The notes under the pieces were generated by a model. The model made no database searches. It had not been told where the DNA came from and saw only the letters and a program-made list of their open reading frames with translations. This document shows positions 1,890 through 16,184 of a DNA stretch of 64,000 bases, one piece after another. Made by a program: the position numbers and the translations under genes. Within the stretch, counting starts at the first letter, position 1; each line of letters starts with the position of its first letter. The DNA comes from an uncultured Bryobacterales bacterium (GTDB lineage Bacteria > Acidobacteriota > Terriglobia > Bryobacterales > UBA6623), in assembly GCA_951813065.1 (NCBI GenBank), contig CATOTH010000001.1, positions 248,001-312,000 of the forward strand, written 5' to 3'.

Positions 1890-2708
1890 ATGGCCGCTCC
1901 TGGCACGCTCCTGGATGCCCGCACCGACCCGGCTGCAGGACAACCGGAGGAGTACCCCTACTCCGATGGCAAGGTCCTGATGGAGACTGAGCCGCATGCG
2001 CGGTCTATCGTCGCCATGCGCGACCAGTTGGAAACGCATTTCAAGGACAGCGAAGACGTCTATGTTGCAGGCAGCATGGCGGTGTACTACCGCCGAGGCG
2101 ACCCCACGGCCGTGGTGGTGCCGGACGTGTTCGTGGTGCTGGGCGCTGCGCAGAAGGAAGCACGCAATTCGTATCTGATCTGGGAGGAGGGCGGCGTGGT
2201 ACCGAGCTTCGTGGTGGAGGTGGCGTCGCCGTCCACGAGCCACCGCGACGCGACGAGCAAGCGCGCGACGTACGAGCGGATGGGGGTGGCCGAATACTGG
2301 CGCTTCGACCCGAAGGGCGAGCTGATTGCGGGGCGGCTGGAGGGCTGGCGGCTGGCGGGTGGTCGCTACGAGCGGGTGCGGGCTGTGAGAGCGGCTGGCT
2401 GGCACCGGAGCGAGACGCTGGGGCTAGAGTTGCGGGCGGAGCGGTGGCTGCTGCGCTTCCATGATCCACGGCTGGGGCGAGACATGCTGACGCACACGGA
2501 AACCAGCGAGGCCCTGCAAGCGACCGCGTGCCAGCGCGACGAGGCGGTGCGAACAGCCAAGGCTGAAACGACAGCGCGACTGACGGCCGTGCGGGAGCGC
2601 GACGAAGCGGTGCGGGAGCGCAACGAAGCGGTGCGGGAGCGCAACGAGGCGAATCAACGGATCCGCGAATTGGAAGCGCGACTGCGGGTATCCGACAAGT
2701 CCGCCTAG
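1890..2708 (+). CDS. Uma2 family (DUF820) restriction-endonuclease-fold protein with coiled-coil tail
   Basis: The 272-residue protein matches the Uma2/DUF820 family, a PD-(D/E)XK nuclease fold abundant in cyanobacteria and some Acidobacteriota; the cellular role is not established. The core spans about residues 15-195: YPYSDGKVLME at the front, then VVVPDVFVVLG (acidic PD position), FVVEVASPSTSHRD (the E of the E-x-S motif), and EYWRFDP. From about residue 205 the chain becomes a charged coiled coil that includes heptads of the type AVRERNE encoded by 21-bp tandem repeats. The ATG at 1890 follows an untranslated gap after murA. A second Uma2 protein of similar design is encoded at 14184-15062. 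The fold assignment is firm; the biological function is unknown. Confidence 0.85.
   Translation: MAAPGTLLDARTDPAAGQPEEYPYSDGKVLMETEPHARSIVAMRDQLETHFKDSEDVYVAGSMAVYYRRGDPTAVVVPDVFVVLGAAQKEARNSYLIWEEGGVVPSFVVEVASPSTSHRDATSKRATYERMGVAEYWRFDPKGELIAGRLEGWRLAGGRYERVRAVRAAGWHRSETLGLELRAERWLLRFHDPRLGRDMLTHTETSEALQATACQRDEAVRTAKAETTARLTAVRERDEAVRERNEAVRERNEANQRIRELEARLRVSDKSA
2586..2648 (+). repeat. three 21-bp tandem repeats encoding coiled-coil heptads
   Basis: Three consecutive 21-bp units (2586-2606, 2607-2627, 2628-2648) differ by only a few bases and each encodes a heptad AVRERDE or AVRERNE. The unit length keeps both reading frame and heptad register, so copy-number change would lengthen or shorten the Uma2 coiled coil without breaking the protein. 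Confidence 0.85.
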
Positions 2709-12425: not shown

Positions 12426-12665
12426 GTGTCCATGGAAGCATCGATCATGATGGTTCGATGGGCGCTTGGCGGATGTCTCGCGGCCGGAATCGTTCTAGTT
12501 GCCTCCGGCAGGGCGGACGAACAGCGCATTGAAACCGGCCGGTCGGCACTGGCTGGGAGGGACTACAGGCTGGCTGTGAGAACAATTGCGACGCTTTCGA
12601 ACGAGGGCTCTAACAAAGCGCAGACGCACCTCGGGACCATTTATGGCAGAGGCAAGGGGGTCTAG
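12426..12665 (+). pseudogene. Sel1-repeat protein, N-terminal fragment of a broken gene
   Basis: The 79-codon frame encodes a signal peptide (VRWALGGCLAAGIVLVASGRADE) and the start of a Sel1-like/TPR repeat (AQTHLGTIYGRGKGV), then stops at a TAG in the middle of the repeat unit. Further Sel1 units of the same style, frameshifted, appear on the same strand at 15745-16184. The ATPase gene ends exactly at this truncation point, its stop sharing CTAG at 12662-12665. I read this as the 5' part of a Sel1 gene interrupted by an insertion of about 3 kb. Its start could also be one of the ATGs at 12447 or 12450. A short functional secreted protein cannot be excluded. Confidence 0.6.
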
Positions 12666-13867
12666 TCGCGCATGTGCCTACGGATGAATTTACCCAAGAG
12701 GGGTACCGAAAAGGAGTACTTCCCATGCCGGTTCTTGTAGACCAAACCTTGGGATGCGAGTGCAACCAGCATCTGATTGACGTGGCTGCCGCCGAACGGC
12801 TTCTCCAAAGACCGGCGCGATTCTTCGACCAATTCTTGGACTGTGAACTCTTCTTCACAGTTCTCAAGGCAAGAAATCACAAACAGCAGTTCTCTTTGTC
12901 GATCGGTTGCGCGTGCCCATCGCCCGGAAAAAAAGTCGGTGTCAAGTTTCTGCTGAATTTCGGCGACAGGAACGGAGGCCCTCGCCCCCTGATCGTACCG
13001 TTGAATGAATGCGTCATAAACCTCTCTGCAGATGAACTGGATGAAGTACGGGTAGCCTCCGGACATCTTGACGATCATTCTCACTGAGCTATCGTCAATT
13101 CGCAGAGGGCACTCTGCATCATCGATGGGTCTACGGACTGCTTCCTCGCTCTCACTCTCAGACAGGCTTTGGAGGAATACAACCCTGAACATCCTTTCGG
13201 AGAATGTCCTTGCCTCGACTAGCTTGGGGAACAGGGTCGGAAGACCGGCCAGGACGAGCATCATAGGAAATCCCTTTCGCTGCAGAGACTGGAATGAATC
13301 AAGTAGCAGCGACAAGGGGTACTGCTCTTTGGCTGATCTGTCTAATAGATTCTGCGCTTCATCGTAGGCGAAGATGATCCCACGTACCTTCGGCATGCTC
13401 GTAATGGCACGCCATCCAATCTCTAGGACACCCTTGATCTTGTCGAGGGACAGGCCGGGAATCTTCTCGTAGGCATCGATCAAGTCTTGGAATCCGAGAG
13501 TGCGCTCGATTTTTTCTCGCTCGCTCACGAATCCCACTCTTTTCACCTCCTCCGTTGTCACAATCACGTTCGAAGTGACCAGAGCAAGGTCTGTGCAGAT
13601 GCGAATTGCCAAGTTGGACTCGCTCAAGCACACGGACTCTGAGAGATCGGCCCCAACCCAAATCCATCCTCGACTCGTTGCCAAGGGCTTGAGTGAGTCG
13701 AGCAAGACCGTCTTGCCCACTCCTCGAAGCCCAGTCAGAACCATGTTCTCCAACACCGTTTCTTGCTTGAGCAGTCGCAGGAATTCTCGGCGCTCGGTTT
13801 GCCTTCCTGCCAGATAAGGCGGCCTGTGACCGGCGCCAGGACGAAATGGGTTGGAGAATCCAGCCAT
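12662..13867 (-). CDS. AAA/ORC-type ATPase (STAND-like), accessory
   Basis: The 401-residue ATPase starts at the ATG at 13865-13867, placed 11 nt after a GGAGG. PPYLAGRQTERREF is the typical entry of ORC1/STAND-like ATPases, Walker A is GLRGVGKT (residues 46-53), and Walker B is GIIFAYDEAQNLLD. SLLLDSFQSLQRKGFPMMLVLAGLPTLFPKL resembles sensor 1, and the last 80 residues look like a winged helix (RWARATDRQRELLF, EEEFTVQELVEES). No nuclease or sensor domain is fused to it. Base composition is visibly less GC-rich than the surrounding genes, and it lies inside a disrupted Sel1 gene, both suggesting horizontal acquisition. Similar ATPases occur in mobile and defence contexts, but function here is unknown. 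Confidence 0.8.
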   Translation of the reverse strand: MAGFSNPFRPGAGHRPPYLAGRQTERREFLRLLKQETVLENMVLTGLRGVGKTVLLDSLKPLATSRGWIWVGADLSESVCLSESNLAIRICTDLALVTSNVIVTTEEVKRVGFVSEREKIERTLGFQDLIDAYEKIPGLSLDKIKGVLEIGWRAITSMPKVRGIIFAYDEAQNLLDRSAKEQYPLSLLLDSFQSLQRKGFPMMLVLAGLPTLFPKLVEARTFSERMFRVVFLQSLSESESEEAVRRPIDDAECPLRIDDSSVRMIVKMSGGYPYFIQFICREVYDAFIQRYDQGARASVPVAEIQQKLDTDFFSGRWARATDRQRELLFVISCLENCEEEFTVQELVEESRRSLEKPFGGSHVNQMLVALASQGLVYKNRHGKYSFSVPLLGKFIRRHMRD

Positions 13868-13900
13868 CTTGAAACTTACCTCCACAAAGTCGTTCGAGTA

Positions 13901-13929
13901 AATTTATTATGACGACTAAATTTAGTCAA
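13901..13929 (-). promoter_or_regulatory. putative promoter with palindromic operator upstream of the ATPase gene
   Basis: On the minus strand TTGACT (13924-13929) and TAAATT (13901-13906) are separated by 17 nt, a good sigma-70 layout. A perfect 14-bp palindrome, GACTAAATTTAGTC (13914-13927), overlaps the -35 and spacer, the usual position of a repressor operator. The predicted transcript would start near 13894 and carry a GGAGG (13879-13883) before the ATG at 13867. This is the most AT-rich patch noticed in the window. The rest of the gap up to the Uma2 stop at 14184 shows no gene. Confidence 0.55.
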
Positions 13930-14183
13930 TTCCATAATCACTTACCTGATTCCCTATCTGCCCCATCCTTAGTGGCGGCCCGAACAAGCGATGGATTCGC
14001 CCGAGCAGCTTGGGGCAAGAGTCGCTGGTCACGAATTGTTGTATGTGGCAGGCATTGTGTGCCCGCGGGCAGGCCTGCGGTGAAGCCCAATCGGCCATCT
14101 CCTGAGGGTGGAACGGCCGTTCGCGGCTTGGGGAAGCTTGGTATTGAACCGGCCTGCCCGCTGAGGACTCTTGGCCCTGGCTG

Positions 14184-15062
14184 CTAAGGCTTGCGTTCCG
14201 ACGAACGGCTTTCAGTAGCGAGTGTCCGGAGTTGCTTCTCCAATGCCCGCGCTCGCTCCTCTGCTGCCCGTCTACGCTCGGCCTCCGCACTCGCGCGTTC
14301 CTCCGCGGATTGTCTGAGTTCCGCCTCGGCACTGGCGCGCTCCGCCTCGGCACTCGCGCGCTCCGCCTCGGCACTGGCGCGCTCTTCCGCTGCCCGCCGC
14401 AGTCGCTCCGATTCTGCCAGATCCCCGTCGAACTCTTCCCCGGTGCGCGGATCCCTGAACACCAGCACTGTCGCCCCGTCCTGCCGTTGGCTGCGCAACT
14501 CCAGCCCCAAGACCCGGCTCCGCAGCCAACCACCCCGTGCCCCGCTCGACACCGGTTGCACCGGGTGATAGCTCTCCCCGTTCGCCTCCCAGCCCTGTAA
14601 GGGTGTCGCCAGCAGCGACCCGGTCGGGTCCAGCCGCCAATATTCGCGTACTCCGATCCGGGCGTACTCCTGCGCCTTGTGCCGGGCATCCTTGTCCGCC
14701 GTTGAGGGCGAGGTCACTTCCAGCACGAAATCCGCACCCTTGCCCTCTTCCCAGACCTTGTACGAGCTGCGGTTCCCGCGCTGCACGCCGAACACCACCT
14801 GCACATCCGGCTGCAGACAGACCTTGTCATTGCCGCGCTCGTAGTACACCAGCAGTTCCATGGCCACGAGCACATTCTCGCGATTGCGGAAGTGCTTCTT
14901 CAAGGCCAGCGTGGCCTGGCTGACAGCATCGCCGTGCCAGACGCTCTGCGCGATCCAGTTCCCTTCGGGGTACTCGACAGCCTCTGGCTCGCGCGCCGCC
15001 GCGGCAGCTGCTGACGGGGTGAGGCTGGGAACTTCCGTTTCTGTGGCGGGAGTGAATGCCAT
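14184..15062 (-). CDS. Uma2 family (DUF820) restriction-endonuclease-fold protein with coiled-coil tail
   Basis: The second Uma2 protein in the window (292 residues) has VCLQPDVQVVFG (acidic PD position), FVLEVTSPSTADKD (E-x-S) and YWRLDPTG, aligned block for block with the gene at 1890-2708. A low-complexity Ala-rich N-terminus precedes EYPEGNWIAQSVWHGDA. The C-terminal third is a long coiled coil built of ERASAEA heptads, partly encoded by 21-bp tandem repeats. It lies between the ATPase and the 3' Sel1 fragment, so it may belong to the same insertion. Uma2 proteins are presumed nucleases; no target is known. Confidence 0.84.
   Translation of the reverse strand: MAFTPATETEVPSLTPSAAAAAAREPEAVEYPEGNWIAQSVWHGDAVSQATLALKKHFRNRENVLVAMELLVYYERGNDKVCLQPDVQVVFGVQRGNRSSYKVWEEGKGADFVLEVTSPSTADKDARHKAQEYARIGVREYWRLDPTGSLLATPLQGWEANGESYHPVQPVSSGARGGWLRSRVLGLELRSQRQDGATVLVFRDPRTGEEFDGDLAESERLRRAAEERASAEAERASAEAERASAEAELRQSAEERASAEAERRRAAEERARALEKQLRTLATESRSSERKP
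14323..14385 (-). repeat. three 21-bp tandem repeats encoding coiled-coil heptads
   Basis: Units 14323-14343, 14344-14364 and 14365-14385 are nearly identical (one or two differences) and encode ERASAEA heptads in the tail of the second Uma2 protein; looser copies flank them. As at 2586-2648 the unit is exactly one heptad, although the DNA sequence is unrelated. Confidence 0.85.
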
Positions 15063-15744
15063 GGCGAACTCGAACGCGCACGAACACGCTTCCCTCGTAG
15101 CATACAGGCTCCGGCGCAGGCAGCCTGGCGGCAGGCTATGCGGCTGGCGCAGCGGGCCCGCTCAGACTGGCCTGCAGTGGCGTAGTCGGCGACCAACCGA
15201 GGCAGGCTGTGGCCTTGCCGGCACGACACTTCGCTCTTGGGCACGGAGGTGGACGGGTGTAGCCATCGCCTGGTTGTGACGATGACGGACGCGTCGATTT
15301 CGCATTCAAGCACGTAGCAGCAACACTTCAGGCGCAACCCCTCGCAGCTCAAGGCCAGCGCAACGCTGTGTGCCGGGAGCCGCCGCCAGGCCGATCCAAC
15401 AGGCAGGCCGATCCGACCCGCAACCTGTCGGCTGGCCTTGGATGCGGATAGTAGGGAATCGGGATCACTTATTAACAGTGTCGAGCGGCGAATGCAACAG
15501 CGGGCTGCCTAAACGACAACAGGAAACCTGCCGCACGAGAGTTGACGGAACTCAGAATCGAACTAGCGCGTGCAGATGATTTGCCTCGTCCTCGAGAGCG
15601 ACAGGGCACTTGGTGTCATGCGACCGAGAATGTAAGGCGCTGCCCCAAGCCGCACCCTGAACTGCCAGCCTCTTGGACCGCTAAAACGCCCTTCGATAGA
15701 GACGCAGAGGCTACGAAAACGGCACCGATGTGCAACTGAAGAAT
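15063..15744. other. 682-bp stretch without a recognisable gene
   Basis: No frame here shows family motifs or a credible ribosome binding site. The stretch lies between the second Uma2 gene and the first homologous codon of the 3' Sel1 fragment, so it probably contains the right-hand edge of the inserted segment and Sel1 sequence decayed beyond recognition. No transposase remnant or clear terminal inverted repeat was found. Confidence 0.5.
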
Positions 15745-16184
15745 CGATGAACGCGCGAGAAAGCATCTGAAAGCCTACAGTTTCGCGTGCGCAACCGGCG
15801 AGGGTGTGGACAAGGACCTCGTCGAGGCCGCCAAGTGGTTCCGCCTTGCCGGTCTCCAGGGACATTCCTCGGGTCCGTCTACCACAGCGGCAGGGGAGTC
15901 GCCAAGGACGGCTTTCAAGCGATTCACTGGTTCCGTTTGGCCGCCTCGCTAGGACTGCCCCCTGCGAATTCAACCTCGCCGTCCTGTATACCCGTGGCGA
16001 GGGTACAGGCAGGATCCTCGAAATCGCCGACATGTGGCTGAAGCTGGCCCTGGACAACGGCTATGGTGATGCTCGAACATTCCACGAACACCTCAAATCG
16101 CGACTGTCAGGGGAAAGCGCTCGAAAGGCCGAGATCCTGGTACGGGAATGGTTCAAGTCAGGCTATCAGCGCTGCCCCGAGTAG
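15745..16184 (+). pseudogene. Sel1-repeat protein, frameshifted C-terminal remnant
   Basis: Three Sel1-like units can be read in successive frames. The first reads ATGEGVDKDLVEAAKWFRLA, the second, after a shift near 15865, GSVYHSGRGVAKDGFQAIHW, and the third, after a shift near 15960, CEFNLAVLYTRGEGTGRILE, running to a stop at 16184 after EWFKSGYQRCPE. Each matches the Sel1 pattern of G-x-G-V-x-x-D-x-x-x-A-x-x-W. An in-frame stop precedes the first unit, and two frameshifts separate the units, so this is not expressed as one protein. Together with the signal-peptide fragment at 12426-12665 it is the wreck of one secreted Sel1-repeat gene. Confidence 0.75.

What the first reader, a model, noticed from the sequence alone, without database searches (positions are those of the whole stretch)
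12426..16184. Sel1-repeat gene split by a roughly 3-kb insert carrying an ATPase and a Uma2 gene
A signal peptide and half a Sel1 unit (12426-12665) end exactly at the stop of the ATPase gene, and three frameshifted Sel1 units reappear on the same strand at 15745-16184. Between them are an ORC/STAND-like ATPase of lower GC and a Uma2 nuclease-fold gene. This looks like a recent accessory island without transposase or obvious terminal repeats, followed by decay of the target gene.
Basis: partly seen in the sequence, partly recalled or inferred. Interest (0 to 1): 0.58.

Follow-up and report, generated by a model that had tools for sequence, protein, structure and literature searches.

The report
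Nuclease gene riding an IS1595 cassette
The 3-kb block between the two halves of a broken gene is two separate insertions, and one of them is a small transposon-like cassette in which a putative selfish DNA-cutting gene (Uma2) sits where the transposase should be, giving one concrete way these over-multiplied genes could move.

Summary
The Uma2 gene lies in a 1,519-bp element (13945-15463) with 24-nt terminal inverted repeats (18/24 identical) and a perfect 8-bp target duplication, ATCACTTA. No mismatched pairing of flanks scored as high (0 of 1,016). The ends resemble those of complete IS1595-family elements in the same genome, which also have 8-bp duplications. The right arm keeps a decayed start of an IS1595 transposase gene. 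So it is a mobile insertion cassette whose transposase was replaced by Uma2. A second complete copy, with its own duplication (TTGCCATA), is in a congener. Only 2 of 127 fully flanked Uma2 places in the genus show the complete structure, so this is one route of spread, not the general one. The cassette landed just upstream of the promoter of an ORC/Cdc6-like AAA+ ATPase, a widely transferred gene with a conserved two-palindrome promoter (50 of 71 loci). The ATPase block had probably interrupted the Sel1 gene earlier; its own ends are unresolved and no intact Sel1 orthologue was found.

The parts
12426..12665 (+). 5' remnant of a Sel1-repeat gene: signal-peptide-like start (by eye) and first repeat, cut at the ATPase stop
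   Evidence: open frame; tblastn to own Sel1 genes E 0.002; composite search
12662..13885 (-). AAA+ ATPase, ORC/Cdc6/SSO1545-like with C-terminal winged helix, 407 aa
   Evidence: AAA_16 E 1.4e-9; phrog_6841 E 5e-62; fold matches 2qen Z 22.8, 2fna Z 21.2
13899..13929 (-). promoter/operator of the ATPase: TAAATTTA at 13899-13906 and 13917-13924, 18 bp apart, over TTGACT-17-TAAATT
   Evidence: such a pair is found in 50 of 71 homologous loci
13937..13944 (.). left copy of the 8-bp target duplication ATCACTTA
13945..15463 (.). Uma2-carrying IS1595-type mobile insertion cassette, 1,519 bp
13945..13968 (+). left terminal inverted repeat
14184..15062 (-). Uma2 (COG4636, PD-(D/E)XK fold) gene, 292 aa, with C-terminal coiled-coil-like repeats (by eye)
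   Evidence: PF05685 E 6.2e-17; D86, E115 and K129 among the invariant columns of a 6-member alignment; PDC-S03 E 4e-13
15073..15112 (.). 40 bp identical (100%) to the stretch upstream of another Uma2 gene (G000:C9) although the copies average 72%
15101..15463 (.). right arm of the cassette, 80% identical to G000:C6:122777-123151
15113..15243 (-). decayed start of an IS1595-type transposase gene (about 40 codons; limits approximate)
   Evidence: hmmsearch E 0.0039, best of 1,945 frames; 44 nt at 79.5% to the IS in L251, E 8e-6
15440..15463 (-). right terminal inverted repeat
15464..15471 (.). right copy of the target duplication ATCACTTA
15472..15703 (.). rest of the earlier, ATPase-bearing insertion; right border unresolved. 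A short repeat GCAGAGGC at 12646-12653 and 15704-15711 is a weak candidate border
   Evidence: about 0.2 such matches expected by chance (own estimate)
15704..16184 (+). decayed 3' part of the Sel1 gene in several frames

Best explanation
A Sel1-repeat gene was first interrupted by a block carrying an ORC/Cdc6-like AAA+ ATPase with its own promoter. Later a 1,519-bp IS1595-derived mobile insertion cassette, in which a Uma2 gene has replaced most of the transposase gene, inserted 15 bp upstream of the ATPase -35 box and duplicated 8 bp. An IS1595-family transposase made elsewhere in the genome would recognise the terminal repeats and move the cassette in trans. Shown by sequence: the repeats, the duplication, similar ends and equal duplication length in complete IS1595 elements of the same genome, the (weak) transposase remnant, and a second complete cassette in a congener. 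Inferred: movement in trans, the order of events, and one original Sel1 gene. The Uma2 protein need not take part in the movement; whether it does is open.
For: Terminal repeats and 8-bp duplication. In 127 fully flanked Uma2 places only the window copy and L150 (G004, duplication TTGCCATA, 1,139 bp) score 29; the next real one scores 25 and 1,016 mismatched pairings reach at most 24. End motif: 4 of 127 places match with 0-2 mismatches, all others with 5 or more; reversed and permuted patterns reach 3-5 at best. Complete IS1595 elements with CCTGATTA... ends and 8-bp duplications: L240 and L251 in this genome, L232 in G003, with 314, 338 and 327-aa frames; 17 and 15-17 of 24 end positions agree between the window's left repeat and L240 and L251. 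Transposase remnant. Edges of repeated DNA fall exactly on 13945 (copies in G000:C9 and G005) and 15463 (copy in G000:C6). The ATPase occurs in other contexts in G001, G005 and G047. The Sel1 pieces are in order on one strand; single ORFs elsewhere align across both (for example G079 3-199 and G006 13-199 of 205).
Against: No relative with the empty site was found for either cassette among the loci held. The two repeat arms agree in only 18 of 24 positions. Only 2 of 127 Uma2 places are complete; two more keep just the left end. The cassette-type Uma2 genes are not a clade of their own: their common ancestor covers 35 of 130 tips. The transposase remnant is weak (E 0.0039), and a first profile built with wrong-strand sequences was discarded. 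No terminal repeats or sure duplication were found for the ATPase block.
Confidence: 0.82

Rival explanations
1. One accessory island carrying ATPase and Uma2 entered the Sel1 gene in a single event.
For: Both genes lie between the Sel1 pieces; in G005 a Uma2 element also lies upstream of the ATPase in the same orientation, 1.2 kb away.
Against: The Uma2 half has its own repeats and target duplication; GC differs between the halves; in G003 the same Uma2 copy as in G005 (98.9% identical over 1,216 bp) occurs without the ATPase part.
Confidence: 0.05
2. The two Sel1 pieces are remnants of two different Sel1 genes and the ATPase lies between genes.
For: No intact orthologue was found; Sel1 genes are multi-copy in this genome; the right border of the ATPase block is not resolved.
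Against: The left piece carries only a start and the right piece only repeats and a tail, same strand, same order; single ORFs in other genomes align across both.
Confidence: 0.15
3. Uma2 spreads by its own nuclease (homing or gene conversion) and the transposon ends are incidental.
For: Most Uma2 places lack such ends (125 of 127 are not complete); Uma2 pairs of 90-97% identity with sharp edges and no recognised terminal repeats; a 40-bp identical tract in otherwise 72% identical copies. Proposed in general form in PMC551604 (passages).
Against: For the window copy and L150 the duplication is exactly at the repeats, as transposition leaves it.
Confidence: 0.1
4. ATPase and Uma2 work as a pair, for example a defence or addiction system.
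For: Adjacent in the window and near each other in G005; Uma2 matches the candidate defence profile PDC-S03.
Against: Separate acquisition here; no Uma2 cluster recognised among the recurrent neighbours of 89 ATPase loci.
Confidence: 0.05

Closest known systems
Mobile insertion cassettes (MIC231 of Bacillus cereus; qnrD mic, PMC3913671, passages read)
   Same: Inverted repeats, passenger gene in place of transposase, target duplication; mobilisation in trans as told there for MIC231
   Different: IS1595-type ends and a Uma2 passenger, with a decayed transposase start still in place
IS1595-family elements, including those with passengers (MTnSag1, tISCpe8; PMC5704250 and PMC8101967, passages read)
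   Same: 8-bp duplications, about 25-bp repeats, passenger genes known
   Different: Those keep a transposase; here it is reduced to a remnant
COG4636/Uma2 proliferating families (PMC551604, abstract and passages read; PMC2701414, passage read)
   Same: Same protein family, multi-copy (0-32 per genome in this genus)
   Different: That study saw no association with mobile elements; here two copies are inside one
SSO1545 / PABY2304 and Cdc6/Orc1 AAA+ ATPases (2fna, 2qen, 2qby)
   Same: AAA+ core and C-terminal winged helix by predicted fold
   Different: Bacterial, 11-16% identical to them, widely transferred, with a conserved palindrome-pair promoter

Membership tests
Mobile insertion cassette (MIC) | bounded by inverted repeats of an IS | tested here: met
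Mobile insertion cassette (MIC) | no functional transposase; passenger gene instead | tested here: met
   only Uma2 is an intact recognised gene inside; transposase start decayed
Mobile insertion cassette (MIC) | target-site duplication | tested here: met
   ATCACTTA 8/8; TTGCCATA 8/8 in L150
Mobile insertion cassette (MIC) | moved in trans by a cognate transposase | not testable with these tools
   complete IS1595 elements are present in the genome
IS1595 family (as an autonomous IS) | complete transposase gene | tested here: not met
   remnant of about 40 codons; so not filed as an IS
IS1595 family (as an autonomous IS) | 8-bp duplication and family-type ends | tested here: met
   8 bp stated for the family in PMC8101967 (passage)
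Uma2 / PF05685 | profile match above curated cut-off | tested here: met
   62.1 bits against 27
Uma2 / PF05685 | conserved acidic pair and lysine of the nuclease site | tested here: met
   D86, E115, K129 invariant in 6 members; their catalytic role is recalled
Uma2 / PF05685 | nuclease activity | not testable with these tools
   none
Sel1-repeat gene, single original gene | an intact orthologue matching both pieces | tested here: inconclusive
   none recognised in the listed matches from 250 genomes
SSO1545 / Cdc6-like AAA+ ATPase | AAA+ core with Walker motifs and C-terminal winged helix | tested here: met
   G52, G57-K58-T59 and D175-E176 invariant in 26 members (motif names recalled); model pLDDT 85, Z 19.5-22.8 to 2qen, 2fna, 2qby

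The most novel reading that the evidence does not exclude
Uma2 nucleases are active partners of IS1595-type ends: the nuclease took the place of the transposase, and cutting by Uma2 helps the cassette spread or persist. Such nuclease-for-transposase swaps, later losing their repeats by decay, would underlie the unexplained multiplication of COG4636 genes.
Probability: 0.1. Interest if true: 0.85.

Novelty: new variant of a known kind. Interest (0 to 1): 0.5.

Why it matters
COG4636/Uma2 genes fill some genomes (over 2% of genes in Gloeobacter violaceus, abstract of PMC551604) and were called selfish in 2005, but that study found them near no mobile element and their insertion 'virtually random' (passages). 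Here is a copy with both transposon ends and a target duplication, and a second independent one, so a vehicle is now concrete: transposition in trans by an IS1595 transposase can be tested directly. My searches for Uma2, DUF820 with transpos-, and COG4636 listed no paper whose title or abstract start reports such a cassette; of the listed papers I read passages of five (PMC551604, PMC2701414, PMC1274311, PMC9403480, PMC8649781), so this is no proof of novelty. Separately, the ATPase's palindrome-pair promoter, kept across phyla, gives a testable DNA target for an uncharacterised AAA+ family.

Tried and rejected
IS1182 as the mobiliser: the first homologue of the right arm (G000:C6, L030) is fused to an IS1182-like transposase fragment. 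But the complete IS1182 copies have other ends (TAGCAGCC...), and IS1182 similarity starts about where the window similarity stops; so a chimera, not the source.

A Sel1-like gene upstream of MLE in relatives: a weak tblastn hit (E 0.03) lay inside a permease-like frame; chance.

Other target-duplication lengths (4-7 and 9 bp) around Uma2: real scores did not stand clear of controls except where they re-found the same two cassettes.

Terminal repeats around the IS1-like transposase plus ATPase in five loci: none convincing.

First ATPase model (3 sequences, pLDDT 68) and its search replaced by the 26-sequence model.

First IS1595 profile contained reverse-strand loci by mistake; rebuilt.

Generality of the cassette outside the genus: viral contigs gave no Uma2 relative and plasmids only 5 distant ones, not pursued. 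ATPase in phage records: 1 unannotated hit. No Rfam match or tRNA in the window.

Dropped rows: 18 of 145 Uma2 places lacked enough flank and were left out of the 127; the 145 come from the 134 loci given to that call, of 183 matches in 11 genomes. In one search, 71 of the 74 genome loci were counted (two truncated, one with short flank). In one search, 82 of the 89 ATPase loci were given. The profile used those of ten IS1595 transposase starts that had no stop in the first 90 codons.
Full report
Setting. The window is G000:C1:248001-312000 of a 5.59-Mb genome in 11 contigs.

The observation. All named features are present. GC is low only over the ATPase (about 0.52), not over Uma2 (0.66-0.69), the first sign that the block is composite.

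The Uma2 element. A repeat search gave a 24-nt inverted pair at 13945-13968 and 15440-15463. Independently, DNA similarity to other copies stops at the same bases: copies in G000:C9 and G005 begin at 13945 and one in G000:C6 ends at 15463. Directly outside lie two copies of ATCACTTA. A scan that asks for an exact 8-bp duplication next to an inverted pair scored the window copy and one other (L150, G004) at 29; the next real place scored 25, and 1,016 mismatched left/right flanks reached at most 24 (first run). L150 is 1,139 bp, holds Uma2 as its only evident gene, and has TTGCCATA on both sides. Two further Uma2 copies (L044, L146) keep only the left end; L041 at a contig edge shares the insertion of L146 (98.9% over 1,216 bp), and L148 has a weaker right end (5 mismatches).

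Which IS. A degenerate element found by its end motif (L109) has an IS1595-type transposase start (NF033547, E 5e-8, below cut-off) and an 8-bp duplication. Searching with it gave complete elements: L240 (identical 24-nt ends, duplication TAACACTA), L251 (ATTCGCTA) and L232 (AACAGGAA), of 1,076-1,085 bp with 314-338-aa frames. Their ends start CCTGATTA, and those of L240 and L251 agree with the window's left repeat in 15-17 of 24 positions, against 8 for two other elements of the same search with different ends, L236 and L243. The cassette's right arm contains, at the place and in the orientation expected, a decayed start of such a transposase: best of 1,945 frames, E 0.0039, plus a 44-nt DNA match to L251, E 8e-6. 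So Uma2 appears to have replaced the transposase from about codon 40 on.

How it probably works. By analogy with MIC231 and the qnrD mic (PMC3913671, passages), an IS1595 transposase supplied in trans would move it. The step is inferred. Uma2 itself keeps its conserved D, E and K, so it may be an active nuclease; whether that helps the cassette is open.

How common. Eleven genomes of the genus hold 183 Uma2 matches, 0 to 32 each. Of 127 fully flanked places 2 are complete cassettes and 4 have at least one good end. Cassette-type genes do not form a clade of their own (35 of 130 tips under their common ancestor). Other recent pairs (90-97% identical, sharp edges) show no such ends. So the cassette explains some copies only, unless ends decay fast.

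The ATPase. It matches AAA_16 and phrog_6841 and, by predicted fold (pLDDT 85), the archaeal ATPases 2qen and 2fna (Z 22.8, 21.2) and Cdc6/Orc1. Relatives of 50-79% identity occur in 74 genome loci spread over many phyla and 15 viral contigs. In G001 (frameshifted), G005 and G047 it stands in other contexts: a widely transferred gene. Upstream, two TAAATTTA palindromes (one mismatch allowed in each) exactly 18 bp apart occur in 50 of 71 loci, against 2 of 3,206 other windows and 2 of 3,550 shuffles. In the window they overlie TTGACT-17-TAAATT, which suggests autorepression by the ATPase's winged helix (inference). The cassette sits 15 bp upstream of that -35 box and leaves it intact.

The Sel1 gene. 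Left piece: start and first repeat; right piece: decayed repeats and tail. Single ORFs elsewhere align across both pieces. No orthologue was recognised among listed matches from 250 genomes of the order, and the neighbourhood is not conserved in the relatives looked at. The left border of the ATPase block is sharp (12658-12666); the right lies between 15472 and about 15715. An 8-bp repeat GCAGAGGC at 12646 and 15704 is a candidate but expected about 0.2 times by chance (own estimate).

Verdict. New variant of a known kind: a mobile insertion cassette with IS1595-type ends and a Uma2 passenger. It matters because the way COG4636 genes multiply was left open in PMC551604 (passages).

Noticed in passing
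window 1938-2435 (+): A second, different Uma2 gene in the window (G000:C1:249938-250435), the best PF05685 match of the genome.
   Followed up: partly
L057, L291, L320, L287, L296, L283: An IS1-like transposase lies divergently upstream of ATPase homologues, across the palindrome promoter region, in five loci of the neighbour survey (L057 is the G047 fetch, with a transposase identical to that of L291); 75-773 bp away. No terminal repeats found.
   Followed up: partly
L337-L345: Viral contigs carry the ATPase with a shared set of neighbours, one of which looks by eye like a terminase.
   Followed up: no
L030 (G000:C6:121277-124651): Cassette right end fused to an IS1182-like transposase fragment at the same CATACAG-CTCC point where two Uma2 copies diverge: a possible recombination point.
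   Followed up: partly
L043/L045, L047/L050, L048/L049, L052/L053: Dispersed Uma2 pairs, 90-97% identical over 0.95-1.2 kb (L049 is cut by a contig end), without recognised ends.
   Followed up: partly
G008 (single-contig genome): No Uma2 match at all, while the ten other genomes of the genus have 7-32.
   Followed up: no
L220, L224, L225: Three identical IS1182-like copies (1,377 bp common) in G000 on three contigs.
   Followed up: no
L041 8880 / L146 1236: G005 and G003 share 1,216 bp at 98.9% up to a sharp break; the ATPase lies only on the G005 side.
   Followed up: no
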